From: an uncultured Propionivibrio sp.
GTDB taxonomy: Bacteria > Pseudomonadota > Gammaproteobacteria > Burkholderiales > Rhodocyclaceae
DNA: 64,000 nucleotides
Reading direction: 5' to 3'
NCBI RefSeq assembly: GCF_963666255.1
Contig: NZ_OY762655.1
Coordinates: 434,001 to 498,000, forward strand
This document shows, piece after piece, positions 34,324 through 49,910 of this stretch. The notes beneath the pieces are model-generated. The model was not told the origin of the DNA. It saw only the letters and a list, made by a program, of their open reading frames with translations, and did no database searches. The translations under genes and the position numbers were made by a program. Numbering within the stretch: position 1 is the stretch's first letter; the number at the start of each line of letters is the position of its first letter.

Positions 34324-35103
34324 ATGAGCGCGAATGTACCGCTGTTGGAGCTTAACCACCTCGAAGTGGGGATCGGGGATCGTTGCTTTTGTCGCGATCT
34401 GAATCTCGTCCTGAAACCCGGTGAATGTCTCGCAGTTCTCGGACGCAATGGCGCTGGAAAGTCGACGTTGCTGTCGGTATTGGCCGGTCTGCGTGCGCAG
34501 AATTCCGGCGAGGTGCGAATTGCCGGGAAAACCTACGCCGAACAGGGGAGCCGCCAGGCAGCACTTGTTCGCGGATGGTTGCCACAAGCGCGTCAGGATG
34601 CTTTTGCTGCCACCGTGATGGAGACAGCCATGGCAGGGCGCCATCCGCACCTTGATCGATGGGATTGGGAATCGGAGAAGGATGTCAGCATCGTCCGCGC
34701 ATCGCTGGCCGCCGTCGGCATGGCGCCTATGGAGCAACGCAATATTCTCACGTTGTCCGGAGGGGAAAGGCAGCGTGTGGCTATCGCCGCGCTGCTGGCG
34801 CAGCAGCCTCAATTACTCTTGCTCGATGAGCCAATCGCCCATCTTGACCTGAAACATCAAGTGGCCATGTTGAAACTGTTTGCCAGGGAATCACGCGAGC
34901 GCAATGCAGCAGTCGTGATGGTTCTGCACGAACCGGCATTGGCTCGACGTTTCTGCGATCGTGCATTGCTGGTCCACGGCGACGGAGATGTAGAAGAAGG
35001 AGACATCGCGAGCATGCTGACAGCTGAAAAGCTCTCCGCGTTATTTCAGTATCCACTGGCAACAACCGAATACGGCGGCTATGTCGGTTTCATCCCGCAA
35101 TAG
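34324..35103 (+). CDS. btuD: BtuD-like ABC transporter ATPase
   Basis: The 259-residue ATPase carries Walker A GRNGAGKST (near 40), the signature LSGGERQRVAIAALL (near 143) and Walker B PQLLLLDEPIAHLD (near 160), with the switch histidine in VVMVLHEPALARRF. It powers corrinoid import through BtuC. It is the third gene of the btuFCD operon. The start lies two bases after the btuC stop. A 176-bp gap follows before cbiZ, so cbiZ may or may not share the transcript. Confidence 0.9.
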   Translation: MSANVPLLELNHLEVGIGDRCFCRDLNLVLKPGECLAVLGRNGAGKSTLLSVLAGLRAQNSGEVRIAGKTYAEQGSRQAALVRGWLPQARQDAFAATVMETAMAGRHPHLDRWDWESEKDVSIVRASLAAVGMAPMEQRNILTLSGGERQRVAIAALLAQQPQLLLLDEPIAHLDLKHQVAMLKLFARESRERNAAVVMVLHEPALARRFCDRALLVHGDGDVEEGDIASMLTAEKLSALFQYPLATTEYGGYVGFIPQ

Positions 35104-35279: not shown

Positions 35280-36110
35280 ATGAATTCTCCTTCAGCCAGT
35301 ATTCCTAAGATGAAGTTCCCCGACCCGGAAATATCGATCCCGGACAATATCCAGGCGACTGTTTCCTTGGTGATTGGCGAGCGTGACAGGTACTGGGAAA
35401 AATCCCTGGTTGTGACGTTTCCAGAGCGTCGCCAGACGCTTTCCACCTATGATGGCTTGGTCGACGCGTTAGCTGTCGTCAATCATTCGGCACATCCATG
35501 CCTATGGAAAACTGTCGGACGGGAATTCATGAATGAGGATGGACGCGGCGGGAAGTCATACGTCGAGCACATCCGTAGAAAATTGGCCGATGACTTTGGC
35601 CTCGACCACGCTTCCATCACAAAAATTGCCACCGCAGTCGACATCGAAAATGTAGCGGTCGTAACCAGAATTTTTGAGCCGATTACTGTCACCGCATTGG
35701 TCACCGCGGGGGTCGAGACGAACGCCGTCAGAGCGGGCACGGACGTGGGTACCTTCATCGAGGGGCAAGAGCCCGCAGGTACGATCAACATCATCTTGCT
35801 GACTAATGCCGTGTTAAGCGTTGGCGCAATGGCGCGCGCAATGGTGACCGCAACGGAGGCAAAGACGGCGGCACTACAGGACCTGGCGATCCCGAGTTGC
35901 TACACCCCAGACGCCCAGGCAACAGGAACGGGTACCGACAGCGTGATTGTCGTATCAGGCGTCGACGGCCCTGCTATCAGTTATACCGGAGGGCATAGCC
36001 GGATCGGAGGAATGATCGGCCAGGCAGTGCGCGAAGGCGTAATCGCAGCACTCGCCAAACACGAGGCATCCGAAAGGGCAAGGACGCTCAGCATCCCGGA
36101 AATCGCGTGA
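35280..36110 (+). CDS. cbiZ: CbiZ adenosylcobinamide amidohydrolase, cytoplasmic
   Basis: The 276-residue protein is a single CbiZ domain. KSLVVTFPERRQTLSTYDG, AVVNHSAHP, the TATEAKTAALQDL block and DSVIVVSG...GGHSRIGGMIGQA are conserved. CbiZ cuts the amide bond joining the aminopropanol (nucleotide-loop) arm to the corrin ring and yields adenosylcobyric acid, allowing salvage and remodelling of foreign corrinoids. No signal peptide, so it acts in the cytoplasm, fitting its place after btuFCD. The ATG at 35280 has a poor ribosome binding site; ATG 35310 is an alternative. It is clearly homologous to the N-terminal part of the exported protein at 45092-46972. Confidence 0.9.
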   Translation: MNSPSASIPKMKFPDPEISIPDNIQATVSLVIGERDRYWEKSLVVTFPERRQTLSTYDGLVDALAVVNHSAHPCLWKTVGREFMNEDGRGGKSYVEHIRRKLADDFGLDHASITKIATAVDIENVAVVTRIFEPITVTALVTAGVETNAVRAGTDVGTFIEGQEPAGTINIILLTNAVLSVGAMARAMVTATEAKTAALQDLAIPSCYTPDAQATGTGTDSVIVVSGVDGPAISYTGGHSRIGGMIGQAVREGVIAALAKHEASERARTLSIPEIA

Positions 36111-36140: not shown

Positions 36141-36560
36141 TCATTTAGCAGTCGGCTGCGTCACAAAGCCGATTCGTGTCAATCCGGCACGCCGTGCGGC
36201 GCTCATCGTCTCGGCAACCGCCTCATAGCGGGTATTCCGGTCGGCCTGCAAATGCATTTCAGCCTTGGCATCCTGGGCGACTGCCATCCGGAATCGCCCT
36301 TCCAGCTGATCGCCGGCAACACGCTCCGCACCCACATAGACCATGCCTTTGGCATCAATAGCCACCTGCAGGTTAAGAGGCTTTTCCGGCATTGGCGTGC
36401 TCGCGGCTCTCGGCAGTTCCACCGGCACGGAATGCGTCATCAGCGGTGCCGTAATAATGAAAATGATCAGTAACACCAGCATCACGTCTACCAGCGGCGT
36501 CATGTTGATTTCTGCCGTTGGCATTTGCGTGCCCGCTGTATTGAATGAGCCGATTGCCAT
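36141..36560 (-). CDS. exbD: ExbD biopolymer transport protein
   Basis: The 139-residue protein has a short cytoplasmic start (PTAEINMTPLVDVMLVLLIIF), one membrane helix at about 22-42 that contains the essential aspartate (LVDVML), and a periplasmic domain. It works with ExbB to energise TonB by the proton motive force. It is the last gene of the riboswitch-controlled operon; the exbB stop directly abuts its ATG. It converges with cbiZ, 30 bp away. Confidence 0.92.
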   Translation of the reverse strand: MAIGSFNTAGTQMPTAEINMTPLVDVMLVLLIIFIITAPLMTHSVPVELPRAASTPMPEKPLNLQVAIDAKGMVYVGAERVAGDQLEGRFRMAVAQDAKAEMHLQADRNTRYEAVAETMSAARRAGLTRIGFVTQPTAK

Positions 36561-37307
36561 TTACGCCGCCTCCGAGTGTTTTCCATCCCGCAGCGGATGT
36601 ACCCGCGCAGTATTGGCAACGAACGGTTTGCCCATCGTAAAGAACGCGTGCAGGTCGTGGGCAAACGCATCGAGATCGGTCAAGATGACGCGATTGACGC
36701 GAGTAAAGGCGTTGTAGGCAAAAACGGCAGGCAGCGCCACGGCCAGGCCGGCAGCGGTCATGATCAGCGCCTCGCCGACAGGCCCGGCGACACGTTCCAG
36801 CGCAGCCTGTCCGGAGATACCGATTGCAACAAGCGCATGGTAGATTCCCCAGACAGTGCCAAAGAGGCCGACGAACGGCGCCGTTGCCCCCGTCGTCGCC
36901 AACAGCGTCAATCCACTCTCCATCCCGGCCTGAGTGCACGAAAGCTGCTGCCGGAGTGTCCGTTCCATCTGTTCGGCGGGGTTGAAGCGTGAAGCGAGAT
37001 GTCCGCGGGCGGCTTCGCAGTCGCTGTTACAGCTGGCGGCTTGTGCGGCCAATTGGGCGTAAGGACTGTCGCCGCCGACATCACGCAACTTCTGTATGCC
37101 TTCGGCCAAAGTCGTCGCCGACCAGAACAGGCCCACGGCGCGGGACGCCTTGTGCAGCTTCCGGTTATCCAGCACTTTCGCCAGAATCAGATACCAGCTC
37201 GCGACCGACATAAGTGCCAGCAGTATGGCGACAGAGTGGGAAATTAGATCACCGTTTTCCCACAGATGGGCGAATCCAAATACATTTTGCATCGCAGTCT
37301 CTTGCAT
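36561..37307 (-). CDS. exbB: ExbB proton-channel protein of the TonB system
   Basis: The 248-residue MotA/TolQ/ExbB protein has three membrane segments: about 18-40 (ISHSVAILLALMSVASWYLIL), 138-160 (LLATTGATAPFVGLFGTVWGIYHAL) and 180-202 (MTAAGLAVALPAVFAYN). The APFVGLFGTVWGI motif is diagnostic. ATG 37307 is chosen: GGAG stands eight bases before it and only one base separates it from the tonB stop. The longer open frame overlaps tonB and is not supported. It is the canonical ExbB partner of the adjacent ExbD and TonB, distinct from the divergent ExbB-like protein at 42353-42967. Confidence 0.92.
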   Translation of the reverse strand: MQETAMQNVFGFAHLWENGDLISHSVAILLALMSVASWYLILAKVLDNRKLHKASRAVGLFWSATTLAEGIQKLRDVGGDSPYAQLAAQAASCNSDCEAARGHLASRFNPAEQMERTLRQQLSCTQAGMESGLTLLATTGATAPFVGLFGTVWGIYHALVAIGISGQAALERVAGPVGEALIMTAAGLAVALPAVFAYNAFTRVNRVILTDLDAFAHDLHAFFTMGKPFVANTARVHPLRDGKHSEAA

Positions 37308-37308
37308 G

Positions 37309-37974
37309 TCATTGCTCCAATCGGAAAGTAATGGGAACCAGCACCCAGCTTTCAACCGGTGTGCCGCCCCGCTTGGCGGGGACGAATTTCCAGGTACCCA
37401 CGGTACGCTGCGCGGATTCATCGAGCCGGAGACTTCCCGACGAGGTTTTGATATCAACCTGGTCGGCAGATCCGTCCGACAAGACATGGACCCGGAGAAT
37501 GGTCTTGCCCTCTTCCCCCAGTCGCCGCGACATCGACGGATAGGCAGGCGCAGGATTTCTCAGATAGTCGGCATCAAACCGCGCCTGAACCAGCGGCGAG
37601 TCGCCTGTCATACCGTTGCCAACACCGCTGCCTGCCGCCGATGGCTTCGCCTCTGCCGCAACCATGGAGGCATGGTTTGCTGCCGGCTCCGCACTGGCGG
37701 TCGTCTCAAGCACCGGTTGCGGTGCCTTTTGCGGCGTCGTCGATTCCTTCTTCTGCGGGACAGGCGGGGTGACAAGCGGCGATGGTTTTGCCCGCGAAGC
37801 CTGGGATAGCGGCATCGCCTCGATCAAGTCGACGATCAACGGTGTCTCGACAAGTTGCGGCAATGCCGTCTTGGTCAGTATCAGCACGGCGAACAGACCA
37901 ATGTGCAGTCCCGCTACGACGCCAATCAACCCGGTCCGGCGCTTCGCAGAAGGACTCGACAGAACGTAGCTCAT
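37309..37974 (-). CDS. tonB: TonB energy transducer
   Basis: The 221-residue protein has one N-terminal membrane anchor (about 13-37; GLIGVVAGLHIGLFAVLIL), a Pro/Lys/Ala-rich periplasmic spacer (PLVTPPVPQKKESTTPQKAP) and a C-terminal TonB domain (about 135-221; NPAPAYPSMSRRLGEEG through VPITFRLEQ). It transmits energy to the outer-membrane receptor. ATG 37974 is chosen because GGGAGG precedes it and it begins just before the anchor. The gene follows the CobN-like gene by 62 bp. Confidence 0.92.
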   Translation of the reverse strand: MSYVLSSPSAKRRTGLIGVVAGLHIGLFAVLILTKTALPQLVETPLIVDLIEAMPLSQASRAKPSPLVTPPVPQKKESTTPQKAPQPVLETTASAEPAANHASMVAAEAKPSAAGSGVGNGMTGDSPLVQARFDADYLRNPAPAYPSMSRRLGEEGKTILRVHVLSDGSADQVDIKTSSGSLRLDESAQRTVGTWKFVPAKRGGTPVESWVLVPITFRLEQ

Positions 37975-38036
37975 GGAAACCTCCCAATTCCTCTGGTGAC
38001 TGTCACGATGGTCATCGCTCTCATCTCCTGAATGCC

Positions 38037-41000
38037 TCAATTAGCAGCGCTCAAGCGCAGTTTTCTGCGCCGGGCATTGAATCCAACCCCGCTTAAGACC
38101 AGCACTGCGAAGCCCGTCAGCGCCCAGTTACGTACTTCTGGCGTCATGTTGCCGAGTCGCCGGGTTTGTTCCTCAACCTCAAACCCTTCAACCTTCGATA
38201 CGCTTTTCCCCTTTGTGTTGGCAGCCGGTTCGTTCGCAGGAGGAGCCTCCTGACTTGCAGGCGTCGTCGCGGTGTCTGTTGCTCCCGACACCATTGCGGA
38301 ATTGGTTGCCGAAAGCGCAGATTGACGACCAAGGTTGGGAGCCGGCGTCGATTCGGCATCCGACATTGCCCTTCGATCCTGCGCCTCTGCGAGCGCCGTG
38401 ATTTCCGGACTGCTGCATGTGTTGGCATCACAGGCAACCCCGGCCTCCGCGATCACTTCACGATTTACCTTGTCCAGATGGGCTTTGACCTCGGGATCGG
38501 CCTTCCAGTACCCCTTGTTGATCGCAACCAGCATCTTGTCGACCAATGCCTGATACGCCAGCAGGTTCCTGGCCTCGCGGAATTTCTCCTTGATGCCCAG
38601 GTTGTTCCGGTCGGTCACGTAGGTTTCGTACAGTTCCTGCCACTTCGCACCATCGACTGCCTCCGGCACGGTGACCTGCCACCCCCACAGGTTGTCGGCC
38701 ACCGTTTTGATATAGCGGGCACCGCCATAGCCTTCCTGCAGCATCGATTTGACCCACTCCGGATTGGTGTAACGAGTCCGCATCTCGCGGCCCATGTACT
38801 TGTCCAGAGTTTCGTGCTTTCCGGCGGCAGGATTCGCGAGGTTCAGGACATGGGTTTCAGGCGTCTGTCCATTGACCTGTCGAATCGCCATTGCCGAACC
38901 GCCCATGTAGTCATAGAGATCGTCGTTATCAAGCGTTGCGAAGAGGTTGCTCGACCGGGCGATGACGGTTGCTTTGGCACCCTTGAGCGCCATTTTGAAG
39001 ATGTTCACCGCCAGGTCCTTGCCTCCAGGGCGATCCCCCCAATAACCCTGGCCAAACAGATGACCTAGGCGATTGAAATACACGTCGGCAATTTCGCCTT
39101 CGTTCTTCCAGGTATTGCTGGCGTCAACCACACGGGAGACACCTGTGCCATAGGCGCCAGGCGGTTCCGTAAAGATGCGCACGGCCGCCATTCTCGCTGC
39201 GTCGGTAACGTTCACGCCCTTCTCTTCGAGCGCCTTTTGCGTCGCCCTCACATTTTCCCGAATCGGGTTATCATCCTCTTCCAGATCCTTGACCTTGCTT
39301 ACCGCATCGTCCAGCAGCAGCATGATGTTCGGCAACGTGTCGCGATAAAGTCCGGACGGGGTCATCGTGATGTCGACACGAGGCCTTCCGAGTTCCTTGC
39401 GAGGAATCACTTCAAGCCCCGACACGCGACCGCGCTCGTTCCAGACGGGCCTGACGCCCATAAGTGCGAGGATTTCGGCTTCGGTGACGCCCTCGTGGTT
39501 CATCGTCTCGGTGCTCCACAAAGTGAATGCCAGACGATCTGGGTATTGTCCGTGGCGCTTGCGATAATCGGAGACGAATTGCTCAGCGAGTTTTTTCCCC
39601 TGCAACCAGATGCCCGGCGAAGGGAGCCGGGTCGGGTCGAAGCCATAGAGATTGCGCCCGGTCGGCAACGAGTCCGGATTACGAATCGGATCCCCTCCCG
39701 GCCCCGCCGCAATATATCGACCGCCCAAGCCAGCGGTCAGCGCATTGAGTTCTTCAGCCGCACTTCTCTCCATGAGCACCGACAACTCCTCCTTGCGACG
39801 CTCAAGCACGTCAGGCGGTAATTCTCCGGCCATCGACAACATTGCCTCGGCCGTTGTTAGCCGGAGGGCCTTTTCCGGCGCGACACCGAACGTGTGCAGA
39901 CCGTACGGGGCCTGGCTGTTGCTGACCTCCTCGAAATACTCGTCGAGCTTCTCGACATCCTCCTCGTCCTTCACCGCCTTGATCCCGATATCCTTGAGCA
40001 CGCCGGTCTTGCGCGCTTGCTGGTCGATTTCGACAAGTTTGGCTGCCGCCGTTGATTTGCTCTTTTGCGCCGCAACCTCGTAATCACCGATCAATGCCTT
40101 GAGCAGCTTGAGTTCCTGATTCAAGCTGGCCTTGTCAAATGGCGGCGTCATATAGGAGATGGTGGCTGCCAGTCCGCGACGCTTGGCTTGCAGCCCCTCT
40201 CCGATGTCATCGACGACATACGGATAGAACTGCGGGACATCGCCCATCAATGCCTCGCCCGGATCGGCGGGCGTATAGCCGATTTCCTTGCCCGAGAGCC
40301 ATTCATGCGTACCATGCGTCCCCACGTGCACCAACGCATGCGCCTTGAATCCCTTTTGCAGCCAGAGATAGAAGGCCAAGTATTGATGATGCGGCGGCAA
40401 GACGACATCGTGGAACATCTTGTCCGGATCGCCTTCCCACCCCCGCGTCGGTTGTGGCGCAAAGACGAGATTACCGAAACGCTGCGCCGGAAAGACAAAA
40501 TAAGGAGTCCCCTTTGGGTCTTTCCAGACCATCACTTTCGATTTCTCCGGCTCGCCCCATGCCTTGATCATTGCCGTACGCAGTTTCACCGGCTGGCCTT
40601 CCAGCCAACGGCGATACTCGGAAATGGGCAGCAACATCGCGTTGCCGCTCCGCACCAGTTTCTCCAGGGCGCCGCGTGACCAGTTGCCGACGTTGGTGCC
40701 ATGATTGCGCAACAATTCCAGCATCGCATCTTCGCTGGCCGGACGTCCCTGCGTGCTGTAGCCATCACGCTCCAAACGCGTGAGAATCTGCCAGAGCGAA
40801 CGTGGCATCACGTTGAGATACGCGGCTCCGACATTCTCCTTGCCCGCTGGATAGTTGTAGTAAATGATCGCGACGCGCTTGTTCGGGTTCAGTTCGTAGC
40901 GTAATGCCGTGAACTTTTTGATCCGATCAGCGAGTCGCTCGATACGCTCGGCAATCGGTACCTCTGCGATATATTCCAGACCGCTGTCCCGATCCCGACG

Positions 41001-42050
41001 TCGCTCCTTGGCCGCCACAACCGTTGGCGCCACGGCCCCTGCGAACTCTGGAAGCGCAACCTGCCACGACCGTTCCGTGTGCGACAGCCCGATGGGGGAG
41101 TCTTCCCATTCTTTCTGGCTCAGGCTCTGCAACGAGATCGCGTTAACCATCGGCACATCCAGTTGCTTCATCACCGGGATGCTGCGTTCCGGCGTGTTCC
41201 CCAGCTTTGCAGCCAGTCCGACCAGCGCTGCGACGCGCGATTTCCCGTTGCGATCGATGAAATACTTCTGCGCCGGAATCTCCGACGGATAGCCGAATGC
41301 CGCGACGACGTTGAACCCGCGAGCTTCCAAAGCGGCAAACATGCTCATCAGGAGTTCGGAACGCCCGGACTGTGCAACAGGCCGATGAAACAAGATGCCA
41401 ACCCAGGGATGGTCGCCCACCTCCGGCCGACGCTTCACGTAATCGGCCGCATAGTCCTCAAAATTCGAAAATGTCTTGCCATTGACCGGATTCCATAAGC
41501 CGCTCATGGGAAACGCAACGACTTCTCCGTACTGTACTGGCAGCCCGAAATCACGCGACAGAACCCGCTTGATCATCGAGGACAGGTTATCGATCCCGCC
41601 AGCCTGCGCGTAAGCCCTTAGCGCGTCGTCCTGGACGAATCCGGCTTTTCTCTCGACTTCTTCGAACGATGAGCCGATGGCATAAGCTTTTGCCCCGCGT
41701 GCGCTCATTTTCCTGATTGCCGGGGTCACGGCTTCGGCGATCTCTCTTCCCATGTTGTAAATCAACGCAACGTCGGCGCCGGCGAGCGTTTTCAGATCGC
41801 GATCTTGAAGTTGTGTGAAGGGAAGGATGTGAAATTTGACCTCTTTCAACGCCGCTTCCTGGCGTAACTGTTTGATTGCTTCCAAGGCCGCCGGCGTCGA
41901 CGGGTCGCCAGGAATGATCGCCATCGAAAGCGGTTTCGCGCAGGCAAAGCCGGACAGCGCACAGCCAAGGAAACCCAGGAGCACTCGGCAGAATACGGCG
42001 ATCAGGCTGTCGCGCCACGCCGTCTCCCGCCTCCGATCATTCGGGGACAT
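38037..42050 (-). CDS. Exported, membrane-anchored CobN-family chelatase (HmuS-like)
   Basis: A 1337-residue member of the CobN/magnesium-chelatase subunit H family (VAIIYYNYPAGKENVGAAYLN; VHVGTHGTHEWLSGKEIGY; YGTGVSRVVDASNTW; WGDRPGGKDLAVNIFKMAL). Unlike the cytoplasmic CobN of B12 synthesis it has an N-terminal signal peptide (LIAVFCRVLLGFLGCALSGF, ending CAK) and a C-terminal membrane helix (NWALTGFAVLVLSGVGF) followed by RRRKLR. It should therefore face the periplasm. No CobS/CobT or ChlI/D partners occur nearby. Its neighbours (receptor, ExbB-like, DUF2149) recall the Bacteroidetes hmu haem genes, whose HmuS is CobN-like. ATG 42050 with GAAGGG is chosen over 42065; it overlaps the DUF2149 gene by 14 bp. 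Substrate (corrinoid, haem or other tetrapyrrole) and direction of metal transfer are unknown. Confidence 0.85.
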   Translation of the reverse strand: MSPNDRRRETAWRDSLIAVFCRVLLGFLGCALSGFACAKPLSMAIIPGDPSTPAALEAIKQLRQEAALKEVKFHILPFTQLQDRDLKTLAGADVALIYNMGREIAEAVTPAIRKMSARGAKAYAIGSSFEEVERKAGFVQDDALRAYAQAGGIDNLSSMIKRVLSRDFGLPVQYGEVVAFPMSGLWNPVNGKTFSNFEDYAADYVKRRPEVGDHPWVGILFHRPVAQSGRSELLMSMFAALEARGFNVVAAFGYPSEIPAQKYFIDRNGKSRVAALVGLAAKLGNTPERSIPVMKQLDVPMVNAISLQSLSQKEWEDSPIGLSHTERSWQVALPEFAGAVAPTVVAAKERRRDRDSGLEYIAEVPIAERIERLADRIKKFTALRYELNPNKRVAIIYYNYPAGKENVGAAYLNVMPRSLWQILTRLERDGYSTQGRPASEDAMLELLRNHGTNVGNWSRGALEKLVRSGNAMLLPISEYRRWLEGQPVKLRTAMIKAWGEPEKSKVMVWKDPKGTPYFVFPAQRFGNLVFAPQPTRGWEGDPDKMFHDVVLPPHHQYLAFYLWLQKGFKAHALVHVGTHGTHEWLSGKEIGYTPADPGEALMGDVPQFYPYVVDDIGEGLQAKRRGLAATISYMTPPFDKASLNQELKLLKALIGDYEVAAQKSKSTAAAKLVEIDQQARKTGVLKDIGIKAVKDEEDVEKLDEYFEEVSNSQAPYGLHTFGVAPEKALRLTTAEAMLSMAGELPPDVLERRKEELSVLMERSAAEELNALTAGLGGRYIAAGPGGDPIRNPDSLPTGRNLYGFDPTRLPSPGIWLQGKKLAEQFVSDYRKRHGQYPDRLAFTLWSTETMNHEGVTEAEILALMGVRPVWNERGRVSGLEVIPRKELGRPRVDITMTPSGLYRDTLPNIMLLLDDAVSKVKDLEEDDNPIRENVRATQKALEEKGVNVTDAARMAAVRIFTEPPGAYGTGVSRVVDASNTWKNEGEIADVYFNRLGHLFGQGYWGDRPGGKDLAVNIFKMALKGAKATVIARSSNLFATLDNDDLYDYMGGSAMAIRQVNGQTPETHVLNLANPAAGKHETLDKYMGREMRTRYTNPEWVKSMLQEGYGGARYIKTVADNLWGWQVTVPEAVDGAKWQELYETYVTDRNNLGIKEKFREARNLLAYQALVDKMLVAINKGYWKADPEVKAHLDKVNREVIAEAGVACDANTCSSPEITALAEAQDRRAMSDAESTPAPNLGRQSALSATNSAMVSGATDTATTPASQEAPPANEPAANTKGKSVSKVEGFEVEEQTRRLGNMTPEVRNWALTGFAVLVLSGVGFNARRRKLRLSAAN

Positions 42051-42375
42051 AGACGACCCTTCCATCGGGAAGTTTGTAGGCGGTGCCCAGACGCTGACCC
42101 TTGCCGGACAGCTTCTGGTCAGTCACTTTCGATACTTTGATTTCCTTGCCCTTCTTGGTGATGATCTCCATATCGCCACTGGCATTCTTTTTCATCATCG
42201 TGACCTCGGACGTTGGATCAAGGAGGTCCATCATGTTGTAAGCCATGAACAGAGCGATCATCATCGACACGATGAAAACAATGCTGGCGTCGAACAGGTT
42301 AGCCACCCCCGCAATCGGGTCTTCAAGCGGCTCCCCTCCGAAAGGGGCGTGCCTACGCTGTGACAGCAAGCGCAT
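42037..42375 (-). CDS. DUF2149 membrane protein (HmuV-like)
   Basis: The 112-residue protein has one membrane segment (about 28-48; ASIVFIVSMMIALFMAYNMM) preceded by EDPIAGVANLFDASIV, the DUF2149 signature. A polar periplasmic tail follows with KVSKVTDQKLSGKGQRLGTAYKLPDGRVVYVPE. The architecture is that of ExbD/TolR (N-terminal helix with an aspartate, periplasmic domain). Paired with the adjacent ExbB-like protein it probably forms a proton-driven motor complex. ATG 42375 with AGGAAGAGGGG upstream is chosen; the longer open frame upstream overlaps the ExbB-like gene. Overlaps of 23 bp upstream and 14 bp downstream indicate translational coupling. Confidence 0.85.
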   Translation of the reverse strand: MRLLSQRRHAPFGGEPLEDPIAGVANLFDASIVFIVSMMIALFMAYNMMDLLDPTSEVTMMKKNASGDMEIITKKGKEIKVSKVTDQKLSGKGQRLGTAYKLPDGRVVYVPE

Positions 42376-42967
42376 CGCCCGTCCCCTCTTCCTGGTGATG
42401 TGACTCGTGTTGGCGTGGCTTGATACGGGCAATCGCCAGTTCTGCCGCATGCGCCATTTCGCGCACGTCCTCGCGAGCCCATCGTTCGCGGACGAGGGCA
42501 ACCAGGTAGGCAAGCACCCCAGCCCCAAGACCGGCGACGGTTGCGGTGAAGGCGGTCACCATGCTGCCGGCCATCTTGGGGATATTCCCTTCAGCGAGAG
42601 CTGCCAGGGAAATCCCCATCGGTATTAGCGTCCCCATCAGACCGAGTGCCGGGCCGACCTTGATGACGAAACGTACCCGGTCGAGACTACGGGAGAGGCC
42701 CAATTCGGTTGCCTGCAACAGACGTTCGACCTCAATTTCCAGTCGCTGCGGCGACATCTTGCACTCATAGCGAAGGCGATCGAGCGCCAAGCCAAACATC
42801 TCACGATCGTCAAAACGATGCCGCCATCTTTGCCATCCCTCGAATAGCGTCATCCCGAGTTGAAGCGGGGTGTAACACACAAGGAATGCGCAGCCCGCGA
42901 TAACGGGAAAGTAAAGAGCGGTCGCGACTTCGTACAACAACTGTTCGATCAGATGAACACTATCCAT
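42353..42967 (-). CDS. Divergent MotA/TolQ/ExbB-family protein (HmuU-like)
   Basis: The 204-residue protein has three membrane segments: about 13-38 (LYFPVIAGCAFLVCYTPLQL), 103-125 (FVIKVGPALGLMGTLIPMGISL) and 136-162 (AFTATVAGLGAGVLAYLVALV). The GPALGLMGTLIPMG block corresponds to the ExbB/TolQ channel helix. It differs clearly from the canonical ExbB downstream and is paired with DUF2149, as in the Bacteroidetes hmuU-hmuV genes and in archaeal/bacterial CobN neighbourhoods. It probably forms a separate proton channel that drives the CobN-like protein or the receptor. ATG 42967 with GAGGTG is preferred over TTG 42982. Confidence 0.85.
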   Translation of the reverse strand: MDSVHLIEQLLYEVATALYFPVIAGCAFLVCYTPLQLGMTLFEGWQRWRHRFDDREMFGLALDRLRYECKMSPQRLEIEVERLLQATELGLSRSLDRVRFVIKVGPALGLMGTLIPMGISLAALAEGNIPKMAGSMVTAFTATVAGLGAGVLAYLVALVRERWAREDVREMAHAAELAIARIKPRQHESHHQEEGTGDALAVTA

Positions 42968-43061
42968 AGTCACCTCTTTCAAGAGAGGGAGGCACCGAGA
43001 CGACTCCCGGCGCCTTCTCTGTACGTTTCCATCGAACGGTCACCCGTTCGACAACCAGGCC

Positions 43062-45035
43062 TTACTTGTAGTCGTAACGAATACCGGCGTAGAAATTCCG
43101 TCCCTGACCCGGATAGTTCCAGTACATCTCGTTCTTGCCATCGAACAGGTTGTTGATCTCTGCACGCAAGGTCAGCGTTCCGTTGCTATTGCGGAGTTCG
43201 ACCAGTTCCTTTTCGAGGCTCAGGTTAGCCACGGTGCCGGAGGGACGCTGGATGTACGGACTGCCTGTCCGGCTGTAGTCCTTGGTCAGGACCGTGCCAT
43301 AGGTGTTGGCACTCAGGCGGCTCTTCAGTTTGTATCCCGGATTGGCATAATCCACCCCGTAACTGAACATCCATTCCGGCGTGTTGGCCAGGATGTCGGT
43401 CGTGCTGCCGTTGTACTGATAGAACTGGCTCGAATCGGTCGTCTTGCGCGTGCCCAACCAGGTAAAGCTGCCGTACGGTGTCAGACTCCAACGCTTCCCG
43501 AATGCTTTCCCCAGGTCATAACGCAAACTGCCTTCCATGCCCGCCAATGTCGCTGCCTTGATGTTCTGCCATTGGTAGGACAGTGGCATTCCTGTCACTG
43601 CCATGCCAACGATCTTGTTTTCATAGCTGGAGTGGAAATACGTCAAACTGGCCGCCAGGGATTTCCAATCAAAATCGGCGCCTATTTCCCAGGTCTTGCC
43701 CTTTTCCGGTTGCAGATTCGGATTCGCGTTGTAATAGGGAGAACTGCCGCCGACCTGACGCGGGGACGGCATCTTGAAGCCTTCGGCGTAGTTGGTACGC
43801 AGCTTCAGTCCTTCGACCGGCAACCAGGCCACGCCGTAAGATCCGCCGAAGTGGCTATCCGTGTAGTCAGACCCGCTTACCGACGTATTCGTGTATTTGT
43901 CATAGCGGCCACCAACGGAGAAGATCAATCGCTCATCGAGCAAACGGAGTTTGCTGGAGAAATACGCACCGTGATCTGCCATCGTCGGCTTCGCCGGCGC
44001 ATTGCTCGCATAGTTGTGATACTCCAGCGAATCGATACCGACCGAGAGCGACCACAAGGAGCCGTTGTAGCCGGCCTGGCCGTTCAACATCTGCGTTTCG
44101 ATAAAATTCGTATACGGCGGGGTTGAGGTCTTGTATTGATTGTCTTCACGTCCTGTGGTGTAACTCGCTGACCAGTCATAGACTTTGTCATCGGTGCTTC
44201 CGGTGTAGCTCAGCGTGGTGTTTTCGGACGTCTTCCGATACGAATTGTAGGTTGAGGACGGGGTGTTGCTGCCGGCGGAACGGATATAGCCCGTCGGCAA
44301 ATTCGACGCTACGTCTCCTTGGTAGTGGCTGAGTCCGACACGGTGATTTTTTGCGATGGCATAGCCCAAATCGAAGGTTCCCATCGTGTTGTGGTCTGTG
44401 TCGGTGTGATACCACTTCCCGAATTCAGACGTTGAAATATCGTTGCGCGTGAAATTGGTAAGTCCAAGGGCGAAGTCGAGGTTGCCGACGGCGCCACCCG
44501 CAGCCATCTTCTCCCGGACCAGGCCGTTGCTTCCGGCACCGAGTTCGATGGATGCGTAGGGCTTGTTTGCCGTCCCCTTTTTGGTGATGACGTTAATGAC
44601 GCCACCCAGTGCAGACGAGCCATATTGCACAGCAGACGGTCCGCGAATGATCTCGACCCGCTCAACGTTGGCCAAGCCCATGAAGCCAAGGTTGGCGCTG
44701 CCAACGCGACGTCCGTTAATGAGCATGAGCACCGTATTCTCCGGCTCATTCATCATCGTGAGGGTGCCATAACCGCGCATTTGCACCCCGCTGGAATCCC
44801 CTGTCGTCACAACCATCAACCCTTGCTGAGTCATCAGATCGGCAAGCGTCGATGCCGTAGATGCTTTGATGTCCGCCTCGTTGATGATCGTCACGTTGCT
44901 GCTCAATTCCCGCTTCGCTTCTTGCGTACGATTGGCGGTAACGACCATCTCGCGCATGCCGGCATCCTCGGCAACGACGGCTCCGGAAAACGTCAATGCA
45001 ACGGGAATGGCTGCAAAAATAAATCTCTTGCTCAT
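43062..45035 (-). CDS. btuB: BtuB-like TonB-dependent outer-membrane receptor
   Basis: The 657-residue receptor has a signal peptide (FIFAAIPVALTFSGAVVAE), a TonB box (MREMVVTANR), a plug domain (about 35-150; GVQMRGYGTLTMMNEP, VQYGSSALGGVINVITKKG) and a 22-strand barrel ending in an aromatic-containing strand (NFYAGIRYDYK). The cobalamin riboswitch two genes upstream and the corrinoid genes around it favour cobalamin or another corrinoid as substrate. The hmu-like neighbours leave haem possible. ATG 45035 is chosen as the start of the signal peptide with AGGAG upstream. It lies 56 bp after the CbiZ-nitrilase gene. Confidence 0.88.
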   Translation of the reverse strand: MSKRFIFAAIPVALTFSGAVVAEDAGMREMVVTANRTQEAKRELSSNVTIINEADIKASTASTLADLMTQQGLMVVTTGDSSGVQMRGYGTLTMMNEPENTVLMLINGRRVGSANLGFMGLANVERVEIIRGPSAVQYGSSALGGVINVITKKGTANKPYASIELGAGSNGLVREKMAAGGAVGNLDFALGLTNFTRNDISTSEFGKWYHTDTDHNTMGTFDLGYAIAKNHRVGLSHYQGDVASNLPTGYIRSAGSNTPSSTYNSYRKTSENTTLSYTGSTDDKVYDWSASYTTGREDNQYKTSTPPYTNFIETQMLNGQAGYNGSLWSLSVGIDSLEYHNYASNAPAKPTMADHGAYFSSKLRLLDERLIFSVGGRYDKYTNTSVSGSDYTDSHFGGSYGVAWLPVEGLKLRTNYAEGFKMPSPRQVGGSSPYYNANPNLQPEKGKTWEIGADFDWKSLAASLTYFHSSYENKIVGMAVTGMPLSYQWQNIKAATLAGMEGSLRYDLGKAFGKRWSLTPYGSFTWLGTRKTTDSSQFYQYNGSTTDILANTPEWMFSYGVDYANPGYKLKSRLSANTYGTVLTKDYSRTGSPYIQRPSGTVANLSLEKELVELRNSNGTLTLRAEINNLFDGKNEMYWNYPGQGRNFYAGIRYDYK

Positions 45036-45091
45036 GCTTTTGTTGGCTCCTGTGTTGAATTCGAGAAAACTGCTTTTCAGATACGTGACCT

Positions 45092-46972
45092 TCAGTCCCT
45101 TACCTCTGAGAAACCTTGCTCGCCGTCCCAATCGACATAGAACAGACGTGATTGGGGAGCGCTGAAGGAGAAGAGACGTTTGCCCTCAACAGAGACAGCA
45201 CTCTGTCCCTGGGAAAAATCAAGTTCAGGTTCTTTCCCGGTACGATTGACGGCAATAAATGGCAGGCCGGTTTCACGCGAGCGCGTTTCCCAATAATTCT
45301 TGGGGCCGAGTTCTCCCGCAGGAGGCCAGTTCGCCGGCGACAGCAGGATGGCTGCGCCTTGCTCGCGATATTGCGCAGCAAGACCCGGTTTGTACGCATC
45401 AGCGCAAATCAACACGCCGACGGGAATTCCATCGACGGACATACGCTTGTTCTGGGCGCCCGGGGTAGACCAGGCTTCCGCCGAACCATGAACGGCCTGT
45501 TTGCGATACGTCCCCTGAATCGTGCCTTGGCGATCAATGACGACGACGCTGTTGTACAACCTGGCGGTTTTTGGATCTCTCTCGGCGAAGCCGACGAATA
45601 ATGCGATTCGATTGTCACGGGCAATTGCTGCCAACGTCGAAACCCAAGTACCGGGGAATGGTTCGATCCAGTCGGTACCAATCCGTTTGGCAAAGTAATA
45701 GCCCGTCTCTGCCAGTTCCGGGGTGATAACCCAATCGGCACCGTGGGCGACGGCGTCCTGAATCCCCTCTTCAATTCGCCTGCGATTCCCGGCGACATCT
45801 CCAGGAACAGCCTCCATGTGCAACAACCCCAGGCGAATCGTATTCGGCGTTTTGGCAATCGCCGCTGCTTTCCCCGCAAACCGTTTTGTGCCGGGCAGGA
45901 AAAATCCATTTTGCTTACCCAGGGACTCAACCACAGCCTCGTAGGTTGCTTTGCCGACAAGTTCGCCGAGTCGGCTATGCCCCCCAGCATAGGTCGCTTT
46001 CGGCCCGGTCGAACCGGAAACGATGATCACGCTGTCTGTGCCGGTTCCGGTGGCTTGCACTGCGGGGCTATAAGTACTCGGTACTCTGAGGTCTTCGAGC
46101 GCCGCCGTCTTGCCTTCAGTCACCGTCACGATCGCACGGGCCATCGCACCGTCGGTCAGGCGTGCGTTCGTCAGCACCATGATGTTGATGGTGCCATGCG
46201 GCTTTGAATCGGCCTCCTGCCCTTCGATGTAAGAACTCTCGTCTACACCCGTCCGTATGGCATTGCTTTTTGCCCCGGCCGTTGCCAGGACGGTGACCGT
46301 CAGCGGGCCGTATTCCTTGGTTACCACCGCGAGGTTGTCCATGTCGGCGGCCGTCGCCATCCTGGCGATCTCTGACTTGTCGAATTTCAACGAATCCGCC
46401 AGTTTCTGGTGAATGTGATCGAGATAAACCTTGCCGCCGCGTCCGTCCTGGTTCAGGAACGCCTTGCTCACCTTGATCCAGAGCAACGGATGCGCCGAGT
46501 GATTTACAGCAGCGCGCGCTTCGACAATCCCGTCGGATGTCGATAATGAACGGCGGCGTTCGGGAAACGAAACGACGAGCGATTTTTCCCAGTAACCATC
46601 TCGTTCTGCGCGGATCACTTGCGCTTGCGCCTGGAGATTGGCGGGTATTGCGATATCCGACGCGGATGCCGGAGTGGTCATCGCCAACGACAACTGAACG
46701 AGCACGAAACCGAGTATTGAAACCGCCCTCCTCGGCAAAGGGAAAAGGGTGTCGCCTCGACCACGTTGGCTGTCATGTCGAGTGAAAGGGCTCCGCTGGT
46801 TCCGGCGACATTGATCGGCGATACGGAACGGACGGTTATCCGCGTCCTGTCCCGTGTCGGAAGAAACCGTATCGTCTGTGGTGTGGCGTAAGTGGCCAGC
46901 GAGCAACTCCACGAGCCGTGAAATCACCCAAGAACGCAAGCACTTATCGATACCAACCTGTCGATGATGCAT
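45092..46972 (-). CDS. Exported CbiZ amidohydrolase fused to a nitrilase-family hydrolase
   Basis: The protein of about 626 residues has a hydrophobic export or anchor segment at about 81-105 (AVSILGFVLVQLSLAMTTPASA). A CbiZ domain follows (about 115-350; KSLVVSFPERRRSLSTSDG, AAVNHSAHP, DSVIIVSG, AGGHSRLGELVG), then a carbon-nitrogen hydrolase domain (about 375-620). The hydrolase domain keeps the whole catalytic triad: Glu in TPELAETGYY (~418), Lys in GTYRKQAVHG (~491) and Cys in VLICADAYKPG (~522). CbiZ removes the nucleotide loop of cobinamides; nitrilases hydrolyse amides or nitriles. Outside the cytoplasm the fusion could trim corrinoid side chains before import, but that is inference. 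ATG 46972 with AGGAG is preferred; the open frame up to 47119 runs into the riboswitch. The 80 residues before the hydrophobic segment are unusual, so a later start is possible. Confidence 0.85.
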   Translation of the reverse strand: MHHRQVGIDKCLRSWVISRLVELLAGHLRHTTDDTVSSDTGQDADNRPFRIADQCRRNQRSPFTRHDSQRGRGDTLFPLPRRAVSILGFVLVQLSLAMTTPASASDIAIPANLQAQAQVIRAERDGYWEKSLVVSFPERRRSLSTSDGIVEARAAVNHSAHPLLWIKVSKAFLNQDGRGGKVYLDHIHQKLADSLKFDKSEIARMATAADMDNLAVVTKEYGPLTVTVLATAGAKSNAIRTGVDESSYIEGQEADSKPHGTINIMVLTNARLTDGAMARAIVTVTEGKTAALEDLRVPSTYSPAVQATGTGTDSVIIVSGSTGPKATYAGGHSRLGELVGKATYEAVVESLGKQNGFFLPGTKRFAGKAAAIAKTPNTIRLGLLHMEAVPGDVAGNRRRIEEGIQDAVAHGADWVITPELAETGYYFAKRIGTDWIEPFPGTWVSTLAAIARDNRIALFVGFAERDPKTARLYNSVVVIDRQGTIQGTYRKQAVHGSAEAWSTPGAQNKRMSVDGIPVGVLICADAYKPGLAAQYREQGAAILLSPANWPPAGELGPKNYWETRSRETGLPFIAVNRTGKEPELDFSQGQSAVSVEGKRLFSFSAPQSRLFYVDWDGEQGFSEVRD

Positions 46973-47092
46973 GATCAAACACTCCTGTTTGACCTGCCGA
47001 GAGGCTGGCGGAAAGGAGAATGGGAAGGCGCGAAACCTCTGTTCCCGAATTCTCCGACCGCCCTCCGCACCCCACAGAAGGTCAATCAATCT

Positions 47093-47111
47093 GTCACCCT
47101 GGGCGGGTGAC
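47093..47111 (-). promoter_or_regulatory. Hairpin between riboswitch and coding region (expression platform)
   Basis: On the minus strand GTCACCC-GCCCA-GGGTGAC forms a perfect 7-bp stem just after the B12 box and about 120 bp before the first start codon. It has no strong T-run, so it may act as a weak or Rho-assisted terminator, or as an anti-sequester element, rather than a classical terminator. Confidence 0.5.
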
Positions 47112-47117
47112 ACCAAC

Positions 47118-47353
47118 AACAGGCCGGTTTACGGGCTCGCAAGTCGCTCTTTCGAACGGATGTTTCGCCTTCCCAGGAGGCCCGCAGCGACGTTTCCGAC
47201 ACCACGTAACGTACCCAGTGACTGATTGCTCATCGAGCAATCCTGAAACACCTACACTCACTTACCGTTGCGGGGGCAGCCGAGGCTTGGCGGTCGATAA
47301 CCACGCACCTCGTTCCCGTTTAACGCTCCACCTTCACAGCAGAGACGCACCTG
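47118..47353 (-). promoter_or_regulatory. Cobalamin riboswitch upstream of the CbiZ-nitrilase/btuB/cobN-like/tonB operon
   Basis: Read on the minus strand: GGTGCG at the 5' end, then AACGGGAACGAGGTG, GGCTGCCCCCGCAACGGTAA, CAGTCACTGG, GGGAAGGCG and the B12 box GCGAGCCCGTAAACCGGCC (47120-47140). These conserved elements in this order are diagnostic of the cobalamin (AdoCbl) riboswitch. It should turn off the downstream operon when cobalamin is plentiful. The previous gene, cbiN, ends 72 bp before it. Confidence 0.93.
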
Positions 47354-47424
47354 TTGCAACGAATTAGCTTTATTGCCGGGACGACTCGAAACGATCGAAC
47401 AGTCCCTTACAACTCACACTCCTC

Positions 47425-47769
47425 TTACTGTTTCTCTCCCGCTGACTTGGCTTGCCTTTCCTTGAACAGCTTTTCTCGGGCCACGCCCACACCAATGAAA
47501 TAGCCGATAAAGCCGGCGCCTATCGCAGCCTGCAAGGCAAACAACAATGAGGCGATCTCTTCGCTGGCGGGTTCGAGCAACGGCTCAAACCATGGTTCAT
47601 AGTCGGGAGCGATCTCGCCGATCATGTCCTTGGCCTTGTCGTCGGCTCCGCCAAACAGCTTGATTTCCGGCGCTCCATCGATGGCTTCGGGCTTTTGCAC
47701 CATCCAGAAAGGGATGATCGCCAACACGACCACCATCAACAGCATCATCAGGTTCTTGCTCTTGCTCAT
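47425..47769 (-). CDS. cbiN: CbiN cobalt transport protein
   Basis: The 114-residue protein has membrane segments at about 8-24 ([16 protein letters not shown]) and 80-98 ([19 protein letters not shown]), with a periplasmic loop [20 protein letters not shown] between them, the CbiN signature. CbiN helps CbiM capture and load Co2+ in energy-coupling-factor cobalt importers. Its ATG overlaps the cbiM stop (ATGA). No cbiQ or cbiO follows: the next element is a riboswitch of another operon. Confidence 0.9.
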
Positions 47770-48443
47770 GACTGCGCTCCCAATTCACGCGCGAAGCCCA
47801 TATCGCTGAGCTCTCTTGGATTGAATCGTGCCAAGGCGTTGAAGATCAGCACCGTCAGCAAGCCTTCGCTGATGGCCAGCGGGATTTGCGTAATGGCGAA
47901 GATTCCGGCGAACTTGGCCAGCGATGCGACAAAACCACCGACGGGATCGGGAAAGGCGAGCGCCAGTTGCACCGATGTCGTGACGTAAGTCATCAAATCA
48001 CCAAGACAGGCCGCGAAGAAAACACCGACGGCCAGCGAGGCTCCCAGCATCCGGGCGAGCTTGTAAATTGCCCAGGCCACAAAAGGTCCGACGATAGCCA
48101 TGGAAAAAACATTGGCTCCCAGCGTTGTCAAACCACCATGCGCGAGCAGCAGTGCTTGAAATAGCAGGACAACGAGGCCGACAGGCGCCATCGCGGCTGG
48201 ACCGAACAGCAGTGCGCCGAGTCCCGTCCCCGTCGGATGGGAGCAACTGCCGGTCACAGAAGGCAGTTTGAGGGCTGAAAGCACGAAAGCGAAAGCAGTG
48301 CCAACGCCGAGCAACATGCGTTGCTCAGGGTTGTTGGCGATCTGCTTCTTGATCGACGAAATGCCCCAGGCAACAAATGGCAGGGAGACGACACTCCAGC
48401 CAATGGCATGCTCGACGGGTAGAAAACCTTCCATAATATGCAC
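47766..48443 (-). CDS. cbiM: CbiM cobalt transporter substrate-binding subunit
   Basis: The 225-residue membrane protein begins (M)[15 protein letters not shown]; the N-terminal Met-His-Ile-Met that binds cobalt directly is intact. [21 protein letters not shown] and [18 protein letters not shown] are the conserved CbiM loops. It takes up Co2+ for cobalamin synthesis or repair. The start codon is GTG (48443), with AGAGGTG as ribosome binding site. A cobalamin riboswitch lies 145 bp upstream, so cobalt import is repressed by B12. Confidence 0.93.
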
Positions 48444-48587
48444 GATTCACCTCTTTTCTCGAATACTGCTCGGGAAAAAGGGAATCAGATCGGAAGATGG
48501 GCTATCAATAGCGTCGACAACAAAAACACTACCGGCAGCGAATCGTCAGAACCTCACCCATCACCCCGAGGATTGGCACCACATTCG

Positions 48588-48783
48588 TTCCAGGCCGGTC
48601 TTCTGGCTCGCCTTCATCCTCCTCCGGCGCCTTCCCATGCGAAAACGTCGCACAGTGGCATATTGCCGGACTCGTCAGGCTTACAGCAGCGGGGGGCTGC
48701 ACCGGAATTGTCATCGAGCTAATCGAAGACGCCACCGGTTTCCCGTTTAACCCCGATCCGCGGCTGCGGAGCAGGGGCACCTA
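48588..48783 (-). promoter_or_regulatory. Cobalamin riboswitch upstream of cbiMN
   Basis: Read on the minus strand: AGGTGCCCCTGCTCCGC, AACGGGAAACCGGTG, GGTGCAGCCCCCCGCTGCTG, TAAGC, GCCACTGTGC, GGGAAGGCGCCGG and the B12 box GAGCCAGAAGACCGGCC (48593-48609). This is a textbook cobalamin riboswitch, with the family's most conserved GCCACTG and B12 box exact. Confidence 0.95.
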
Positions 48784-48795
48784 AAACTGAAAAAG

Positions 48796-48824
48796 AGTTT
48801 AATGAGAAATATTCCCACTGACAA
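48796..48824 (-). promoter_or_regulatory. Sigma-70-type promoter of the cbiMN leader
   Basis: On the minus strand TTGTCA (48819-48824), a 17-bp spacer and TAAACT (48796-48801). Transcription would start about 10 bases before the riboswitch's first paired bases. Confidence 0.6.
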
Positions 48825-49904: not shown

Positions 49905-49910
49905 CCTCCT

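What the first reader, a model, noticed from the sequence alone, without database searches (positions are those of the whole stretch)
36141..47353. One B12-riboswitch operon joins an exported CbiZ-nitrilase, a receptor, two proton-channel pairs and an exported CobN-family chelatase
Seen: a cobalamin riboswitch followed by eight tightly spaced minus-strand genes: CbiZ-nitrilase, BtuB-like receptor, divergent ExbB, DUF2149, CobN-like, TonB, ExbB, ExbD. Known: receptor/CobN-like/ExbB-like/DUF2149 sets occur as hmuR-S-U-V haem-uptake genes in Bacteroidetes; CbiZ salvages corrinoids. Inference: this is a periplasmic corrinoid-processing and uptake machine, in which the chelatase removes or inserts metal, or holds the ring, and the second channel pair powers it. 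I do not know a described system of this composition.
Basis: partly seen in the sequence, partly recalled or inferred. Interest (0 to 1): 0.87.

Follow-up and report, generated by a model that had tools for sequence, protein, structure and literature searches.

The report
Exported vitamin B12 processing operon
A bacterium has one vitamin-B12-controlled gene set that seems to cut up B12-like molecules outside the cell's inner membrane, using a metal-handling enzyme that may be driven by its own proton-powered motor instead of by ATP.

Summary
A cobalamin riboswitch is followed by eight close-set minus-strand genes: exported CbiZ-amidase fusion, TonB-dependent receptor, ExbB-like, DUF2149, exported CobN-like, TonB, ExbB, ExbD. 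The core belongs to the BtuS kind; a heme-specific cousin is HmuS. New here: (1) the CbiZ-nitrilase part recurs in relatives, fused or as neighbouring genes, twice beside a chelatase of another clade; (2) the ExbB-like/DUF2149 pair accompanies CobN-like proteins in archaea in which no TonB-dependent receptor was found (0 of 44 genomes), so it is probably the chelatase's own motor, not TonB's, against the published reading of HmuU/HmuV; (3) the host's only CobN-family protein is this exported one, no CobT and no strong TIGR02442 match was found, and a cobalt-early cbi operon with CbiX lies elsewhere, so it is not biosynthetic. Best reading: periplasmic corrinoid trimming followed by proton-powered metal chemistry, most likely cobalt extraction that feeds CbiM/CbiN. 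Corrinoid processing outside the cytoplasm is well supported, the motor role fairly, the direction of the metal chemistry is open. It is not an HmuS by sequence.

The parts
47105..47369 (-). Cobalamin riboswitch aptamer heading the operon
   Evidence: RF00174, 81.8 bits
45092..46738 (-). Exported CbiZ-carbon-nitrogen hydrolase fusion (TTG start; alternative ATG at 46972)
   Evidence: PF01955 and PF00795; signal-like segment; Glu, Lys and Cys conserved with relatives
43062..45035 (-). TonB-dependent outer-membrane receptor
   Evidence: PF07715, PF00593; sub-type unclear
42353..42967 (-). ExbB-like proton-channel subunit, proposed chelatase motor
   Evidence: PF01618 47 bits; profile match to ExbB
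42037..42375 (-). DUF2149, ExbD-like one-TM protein with invariant TM Asp, proposed chelatase motor
   Evidence: PF09919; Asp in 92 of 92; hhalign to ExbD
38037..42050 (-). Exported CobN-like (BtuS-type) chelatase with N-terminal signal and a weaker C-terminal hydrophobic segment
   Evidence: PF02514; motifs; ends
37309..37974 (-). TonB
   Evidence: PF03544
36561..37307 (-). ExbB of the TonB system
   Evidence: PF01618
36141..36560 (-). ExbD of the TonB system
   Evidence: PF02472
48576..48799 (-). Second cobalamin riboswitch, upstream of cbiM-cbiN
   Evidence: RF00174 120.2 bits
47766..48443 (-). CbiM, cobalt ECF transporter S component
   Evidence: PF01891
47425..47769 (-). CbiN
   Evidence: PF02553
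35280..36110 (+). Second CbiZ without a signal segment before the domain, 59% identical to the exported one
   Evidence: PF01955; identity; alignment
34324..35103 (+). BtuD-type ATPase
   Evidence: PF00005
33330..34322 (+). BtuC-type permease
   Evidence: PF01032
32250..33308 (+). BtuF-type binding protein
   Evidence: PF01497

Best explanation
A B12-repressed, extracytoplasmic corrinoid-processing operon of the BtuS kind. Shown by sequence: riboswitch, receptor with its own TonB-ExbB-ExbD, exported CbiZ joined to an amidase-type hydrolase, exported CobN-like protein, and an ExbB-like/DUF2149 pair. Inferred: when B12 is low the receptor brings corrinoids into the periplasm; CbiZ opens the amide that carries the nucleotide loop; the joined amidase hydrolyses a further amide (a ring side chain or the released piece); the CobN-like protein, anchored on the outer face of the inner membrane, takes the trimmed ring; and ExbB-like/DUF2149 uses the proton gradient to drive its conformational cycle, in the place that CobS/CobT or ChlI/ChlD (ATPases) take in the cytoplasm. 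The most likely outcome is removal of cobalt, taken up through the neighbouring CbiM/CbiN for the host's own cobalt-early B12 pathway. I give corrinoid processing outside the cytoplasm about 0.85, the motor role about 0.6, and cobalt removal (against insertion or mere hand-off) about 0.4.
For: Riboswitch and gene order. In 48 bacterial family loci the CobN clades of types A and C have a cobalamin riboswitch on or within 3 kb of the stretch in 8 of 8, the others in 0 of 40, some of these cut by contig ends (loci are related, so the P of 2.7e-9 is not strict); types A, B and C each form a group with support 1.0. The host has one PF02514 protein, the exported one, no CobT match (3 of 57 genomes hit) and only a weak TIGR02442 match, E 2.4e-4. 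It has CbiX and a cobalt-early cbi operon elsewhere. In archaea 43 of 44 loci keep ExbB-like within 600 bp of DUF2149 and 30 of 44 have CobN on the stretch, 25 of them in the window's order ExbB-like>DUF2149>CobN; no plug domain was found in 44 of 44 archaeal genomes (completeness not told), against 3 and 31 matches in the two bacteria. DUF2149 Asn and TM Asp invariant in 92 of 92 sequences of 40 bits or more; DUF2149 vs ExbD local hhalign probability 53%, E 1.4e-4, Asp on Asp, four control pairs 0.15-0.51%. 29 of 31 long archaeal CobN-like frames have an N-terminal hydrophobic segment and 67 of 72 CobN-like frames a C-terminal one. Archaeal L213 and L227: chelatase followed by CbiM, CbiN and an ABC-type ATPase. 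In 6 of 7 non-own loci with a nitrilase match at E<=1e-25, CbiZ is fused or on the same stretch.
Against: ExbB-like/DUF2149 pairs occur without CobN on the stretch in 10 of 48 bacterial loci (1 at a contig end) and 14 of 44 archaeal loci (5 at contig ends), so the motor may serve other clients too. CbiZ-nitrilase occurs without CobN in L242 and L244, so the two halves are separable; L244 and L099 have no riboswitch on the stretch. The receptor scores higher with a hemin model than with the B12 model, both below cut-off. DUF2149 does not reach the ExbD family in Pfam at E 0.001; in global mode hhalign gives it 0.1% with ExbD; its model is poor (pLDDT 69) and matches no solved fold at E 0.001. 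The window's C-terminal hydrophobic segment (1.36) is under the 1.6 cut. 24 of 37 archaeal genomes do have a TIGR02442 match of 100 bits or more. CobS and separate ChlI/ChlD models were not searched. Gentle removal of cobalt from an intact corrin is not known chemically (recalled).
Confidence: 0.6

Rival explanations
1. Hand-off without metal chemistry: the CobN-like protein is a proton-powered holder that takes corrinoids from the receptor to CbiZ-amidase and then to BtuF; the metal is untouched.
For: In L075 and L243 the chelatase sits in one riboswitch operon with a receptor and BtuC, BtuD, and in L075 with the adenosyltransferase BtuR, i.e. uptake of whole corrinoids. Head/neck domains of class I chelatases resemble binding proteins (PMC12583661, passage).
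Against: The superfamily histidine motif HxGTHG is kept in the window (HVGTHG), and HmuS with that histidine mutated loses metal removal (PMC12583661, Discussion part 1).
Confidence: 0.3
2. Cobalt insertion or metal exchange: the exported CobN-like protein puts cobalt into metal-free or wrong-metal corrinoids before import, as cytoplasmic CobN does.
For: The second active-site position is Asp as in CobN (LDNDDLYDYMGG against LDSDDYYQFEGG), not His as in HmuS.
Against: Chelatase genes lie beside importers of cobalt (window CbiMN; archaeal L213, L227), which would withdraw the metal from an outside insertase; the host makes its own cobalt-corrins with CbiX.
Confidence: 0.2
3. Heme iron harvest as in hmu: the operon is an HmuS-type heme de-chelatase system and the B12 riboswitch is incidental.
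For: HmuS is the best PDB sequence match (504 bits); the receptor's top model is a hemin receptor; Met-79/Gly-80 of HmuS are matched.
Against: HmuS His-254 is aligned to Ala, the second axial His to Asp, the Met-rich insertion is missing (27 residues between the aligned blocks against 235), hmuY and hmuT are absent from the operon, CbiZ is in it and a riboswitch in front.
Confidence: 0.07
4. The ExbB-like/DUF2149 pair energises TonB and the receptor, as proposed for HmuU/HmuV in Bacteroides (PMC10100974; also a figure legend of PMC12583661).
For: Sequence similarity to ExbB/ExbD; a receptor, TonB, ExbB or ExbD homologue lies on 24 of 48 bacterial stretches.
Against: This operon already holds a complete TonB-ExbB-ExbD; the same pair sits with CobN-like proteins in archaeal genomes with no plug domain found.
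Confidence: 0.2

Closest known systems
BtuS family (third CobN-related type, Rodionov et al. 2003; seen only as cited in PMC6460266)
   Same: CobN-family protein, exported, B12-linked, predicted to act in tetrapyrrole salvage
   Different: Here with exported CbiZ-amidase and its own TonB-ExbB-ExbD; B. fragilis BtuS1/2 are implicated in heme-iron use
Hmu system, HmuYRSTUV (PMC12583661, PMC10434189, PMC13227078)
   Same: Receptor, CobN-like protein with membrane segments at its ends, ExbB-like, DUF2149
   Different: No HmuY or HmuT; most HmuS-specific features absent; B12 riboswitch and CbiZ-nitrilase present
Aerobic cobaltochelatase CobN-CobS-CobT
   Same: CobN family; Asp at the second active-site position
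   Different: Exported; no CobT and no strong TIGR02442 match in the host; host uses CbiX and the cobalt-early pathway
CbiZ corrinoid salvage (cytoplasmic amidohydrolase; recalled)
   Same: CbiZ domain
   Different: Signal peptide and fused carbon-nitrogen hydrolase; the host keeps a separate CbiZ without a signal beside btuFCD
ExbB-ExbD / TolQ-TolR motors
   Same: ExbB-family channel; partner with one TM and an invariant Asp
   Different: DUF2149 has a short outer part with no detected ExbD similarity; its neighbour is a chelatase, also in archaea

Membership tests
HmuS heme de-chelatase | Met-79/Gly-80 in head domain | tested here: met
   Met-Gly of YNMG aligned with Met-79/Gly-80
HmuS heme de-chelatase | His-254 in His-Gly-Arg motif | tested here: not met
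   His-254 aligned with Ala
HmuS heme de-chelatase | His-1209 in LSLDHxxEFMGG | tested here: not met
   LDNDDLYDYMGG: Asp
HmuS heme de-chelatase | Methionine-rich insertion | tested here: not met
   27 residues between the two aligned blocks against 235 in HmuS
HmuS heme de-chelatase | Transmembrane segment at both ends | tested here: inconclusive
   N-terminal segment 2.34; C-terminal segment 1.36, under the 1.6 cut
BtuS | CobN-family protein under B12 regulation, exported | tested here: met
   definition taken from PMC6460266, original paper not read
BtuS | Activity on corrinoids or metalloporphyrins | not testable with these tools
   Needs biochemistry
Biosynthetic CobN | Cytoplasmic, with CobS/CobT or ChlID-type motor | tested here: not met
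   Signal-like start; no CobT, only weak TIGR02442 in the genome; CobS itself not searched
CbiZ | PF01955 domain | tested here: met
   180.9 bits, cut-off 27
Carbon-nitrogen hydrolase | Glu-Lys-Cys residues (triad recalled) | tested here: met
   PEL, YRK and LICAD in the window protein; Glu, Lys and Cys kept in the 7 relatives aligned
ExbD/TolR | Membership by Pfam | tested here: not met
   DUF2149 matches only PF09919 at E 0.001
ExbD/TolR | TM helix with proton-carrying Asp | tested here: met
   Asp invariant in 92 of 92; aligned on ExbD Asp. Proton carrying itself not tested
ExbD/TolR | Periplasmic domain fold | tested here: inconclusive
   Low-confidence single-sequence model, no fold match
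BtuB receptor | NCBIfam TIGR01779 over cut-off | tested here: not met
   119.9 bits against 599.7

The most novel reading that the evidence does not exclude
A class I tetrapyrrole chelatase run by the proton gradient: ExbB-like/DUF2149 replaces the AAA+ ATPase of CobN and ChlH, in bacteria and archaea, and here drives a periplasmic 'reverse biosynthesis' of B12, in which exported CbiZ, an exported amidase and exported CobN undo late biosynthetic steps in turn, so that cobalt is taken out of foreign corrinoids and re-used.
Probability: 0.25. Interest if true: 0.9.

Novelty: new variant of a known kind. Interest (0 to 1): 0.72.

Why it matters
HmuS has been shown to remove iron from heme (PMC12583661), but what HmuU and HmuV do is unsettled: one paper assigns them to TonB-driven import (PMC10100974), another calls HmuV a protein with no known family and leaves open an effect on HmuS (PMC13227078). 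The comparison here points to one testable answer for the whole superfamily, including the archaeal members whose use PMC12583661 calls unclear: the pair is the chelatase's proton motor. It also adds an exported CbiZ and a CbiZ-linked amidase to corrinoid salvage, which I did not see described in what I read.

Tried and rejected
Heme de-chelatase membership: rejected on residues and insertion. Biosynthetic CobN: rejected because the host has no CobT match, no strong TIGR02442 match, and has CbiX. Structure route: DUF2149 predicted from one sequence, pLDDT 69, no PDB fold match at E 0.001; it neither helps nor harms the ExbD link. Global-mode hhalign gave DUF2149 against ExbD only 0.1%. Plasmid search with the fusion: no record where one place covers 80% of it. 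My first adjacency rule (same strand, within 1 kb; 24 of 48 bacterial and 24 of 45 archaeal loci) misses CobN where stop-to-stop frames or an intervening gene spoil distances, so I report 'on the fetched stretch'. L220 was dropped from the archaeal count because my profile did not re-find DUF2149 there; it does carry CobN on the other strand. My first test for N-terminal segments looked only at the 60 residues before the body and found 44 of 72; the later one looked at the first 130 residues of archaeal frames over 1200 aa. CobN-like frames under 900 aa were left out of the motif survey and those of 1200 aa or less out of the tree; DUF2149 hits under 40 bits were left out of the profile. The Fisher test ignores relatedness.

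Literature: 10 searches; their listings are capped, so absence from print is not shown. One search, the one with CbiZ and nitrilase together, listed 25 of 5,722 papers. Five papers hold the word DUF2149; I saw passages of one of them. Read: sections 12 and 14, section 21 part 1 of 2, and passages, of PMC12583661; section 17 and passages of PMC6460266; passages only of PMC10100974, PMC10434189, PMC10846266 and PMC13227078. Others were seen only in search listings. Rodionov et al. 2003 was not looked up.
Full report
What is there. The minus strand from 47369 to 36141 holds a cobalamin riboswitch (81.8 bits) and eight close-set genes whose families Pfam confirms. Just upstream lie a second, stronger cobalamin riboswitch (120.2 bits) with cbiM and cbiN, and convergent to the operon's end lie btuF, btuC, btuD and a second cbiZ on the plus strand. 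The window is therefore a B12 and cobalt acquisition block. Terminator-like sites in the region are no more frequent than chance (14 against 13.7).

Where the proteins sit. The CbiZ-nitrilase frame has a hydrophobic segment directly before the CbiZ domain, in the form of a Sec signal; the second CbiZ, 59% identical, has none there. In relatives the fusion again has a signal-like stretch before CbiZ (L242, L243, L244; in L243 the frame opens earlier), and in L099 CbiZ and nitrilase are separate genes that each begin with one. The CobN-like protein has a signal-like start and a weaker C-terminal hydrophobic segment followed by RRRK (1.36 against a cut of 1.6); 67 of 72 frames with a C-terminus pass that cut.

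The host does not need it for making B12. The genome has one PF02514 protein, this one. CobT is not found and TIGR02442 gives only E 2.4e-4; CobS, ChlI and ChlD models were not searched. Another locus, behind a riboswitch, has CbiM, CbiQ, CbiO, CbiF, CbiX, CbiC, CbiD, CbiL, CbiG, a corrin methylase, CobO and CbiA, a cobalt-early pathway with its own chelatase.

Which branch. PF09919 (DUF2149) is in 39 of 150 genomes of the family. I read the surroundings of all 48 matches. A tree of 71 CobN-like proteins (frames over 1200 aa) splits into type A (window, L031, L032), type C (L073-L077, L243, and L099 from another family of the class), type B and the archaea; A, B and C have support 1.0, the archaeal group 0.54, the A-C sister relation 0.48. 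Cobalamin riboswitches accompany A and C in 8 of 8 family loci and none of the other 40, some of which are cut by contig ends. L099 (type C) has none on its stretch, L243 (type C) has one.

Not HmuS. The HmuS structure is the best PDB match (504 bits), but in the window protein the HmuS His-254 is aligned to Ala, the second axial histidine to Asp, and the Met-rich insertion is missing (27 residues between the two aligned blocks against 235). The cavity histidine of the HxGTHG motif, essential in HmuS (PMC12583661), is kept, and so is the Met-Gly of the head. His at the second position was seen only in L058-L060 among the bacteria and in L191, L218 and L220 among the archaea.

The second proton pair. 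This operon has a full TonB-ExbB-ExbD set in addition to ExbB-like/DUF2149. To ask what the pair is for, I looked where TonB cannot act. DUF2149 was found in 62 of 196 genomes of the phylum of Methanomicrobium and in 4 of 20 methanogens reached by locus. I read 45 loci: one match from each of 40 of the 62 genomes, and all five matches of the 4. In the 44 where the profile re-found DUF2149, ExbB-like is within 600 bp in 43 and CobN is on the stretch in 30: 25 in the window's order, 3 with CobN first, 2 on the other strand. No homologue of the window's TonB, receptor, ExbB or ExbD was found on these stretches, and no plug domain in the 44 genomes, whose completeness is not told, while the two bacteria in the same search gave 3 and 31. 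29 of 31 long archaeal CobN-like frames start with a hydrophobic segment. DUF2149 keeps Asn and a membrane Asp in 92 of 92 sequences, and its profile aligns that Asp on the ExbD Asp (local hhalign 53%, E 1.4e-4; four control pairs 0.15-0.51%; global mode only 0.1%). The pair is thus best read as an ExbBD-type motor whose client is the exported chelatase. Against this, 10 of 48 bacterial and 14 of 44 archaeal pairs have no CobN on the stretch (1 and 5 of these at contig ends); some sit beside a DUF2162 transporter (L186, L207) or an exported Sel1-repeat protein (L068), so the motor may have other clients. And 24 of 37 archaeal genomes, though only 2 of 20 bacterial ones, also hold a TIGR02442 match of at least 100 bits. 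Of the 13 archaeal genomes without one, 10 have CobN on the stretch with the pair; in two of these (L202, L224) that CobN lacks the histidine motif.

The CbiZ-nitrilase part. Nitrilase-domain matches at E<=1e-25 were found in 4 of 399 genomes of the order and 3 of 398 of the phylum, own genome included in both; an earlier class search with the whole fusion (369 genomes) gave G292 besides. Of the 7 non-own loci, 6 have CbiZ fused or on the same stretch; L247 (33% identity) does not. L243 has one riboswitch, receptor, BtuC, BtuD, a weak BtuF match (23 bits), exported CbiZ-nitrilase, CobN, ExbB-like, DUF2149 and CbiA in a row; L242 the same order without the chelatase; L244 the fusion alone; L245 and L246 a riboswitch, receptor, CbiZ and an unsignalled nitrilase. 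The catalytic Glu, Lys and Cys are kept. The recurrence beside chelatases of two clades (A in the window, C in L099 and L243) argues for a working link between trimming and chelatase.

How it most likely works. Under B12 shortage the cell imports corrinoids, trims them outside the inner membrane and passes them to a proton-powered CobN-like protein. I commit to cobalt removal as the most likely act, because chelatase genes lie beside cobalt importers (window CbiMN; archaeal L213 and L227, where CbiM and CbiN follow CobN directly) and because the host has a cytoplasmic CbiX pathway to use that cobalt. The reading is weakened by the CobN-like Asp, by operons that join the chelatase to whole-corrinoid uptake and adenosylation (L075), and by the difficulty of taking cobalt out of a corrin (recalled). 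Hand-off and insertion remain live.

Known or new. B12-regulated exported CobN-like proteins are the BtuS kind (PMC6460266, citing Rodionov 2003), and PMC10100974 already notes hmu-like operons with a cobalamin riboswitch; that paper also reads HmuU/HmuV as the TonB motor and HmuV as diagnostic of heme transport, which the present data contradict. In the listings and passages that I saw no paper joins CbiZ with a nitrilase or gives DUF2149 to the chelatase; the listings are capped, so this is not proof of absence.

Noticed in passing
window 35280-36110: Second CbiZ, without a signal segment, at the end of a btuFCD cluster; with the exported copy the host has CbiZ for two compartments.
   Followed up: partly
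window 47425-48799: cbiM-cbiN under its own cobalamin riboswitch, without cbiQ or cbiO beside it; CbiM, CbiQ and CbiO lie in the de novo operon (L233).
   Followed up: partly
L213:548-10210: Archaeal operon DUF2162 > ExbB-like > DUF2149 > exported CobN > CbiM > CbiN, followed by genes that look like CbiQ, CbiO and corrin methylases.
   Followed up: partly
L186, L207, L192: DUF2162 'predicted transporter' directly before ExbB-like/DUF2149; in L186 and L207 there is no CobN on the stretch.
   Followed up: partly
L068:9865-11684: ExbB-like/DUF2149 next to a Sel1-repeat protein with a signal-like start, without CobN: a possible other client of the same motor.
   Followed up: no
L193, L202, L224: Archaeal CobN-like proteins beside the pair that lack the HxGTHG histidine motif; possibly non-catalytic paralogues.
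   Followed up: no
L245, L246: Two similar copies in one genome of nitrilase, cobalamin riboswitch, receptor and CbiZ; in L245 also DUF7676 between receptor and CbiZ and a phage-type integrase beside it, which suggests a mobile island.
   Followed up: no
window 49068-51272: A small cupin (49068-49424) and a DUF2325 protein (49911-51272) upstream of the cobalt block; relation unknown.
   Followed up: no
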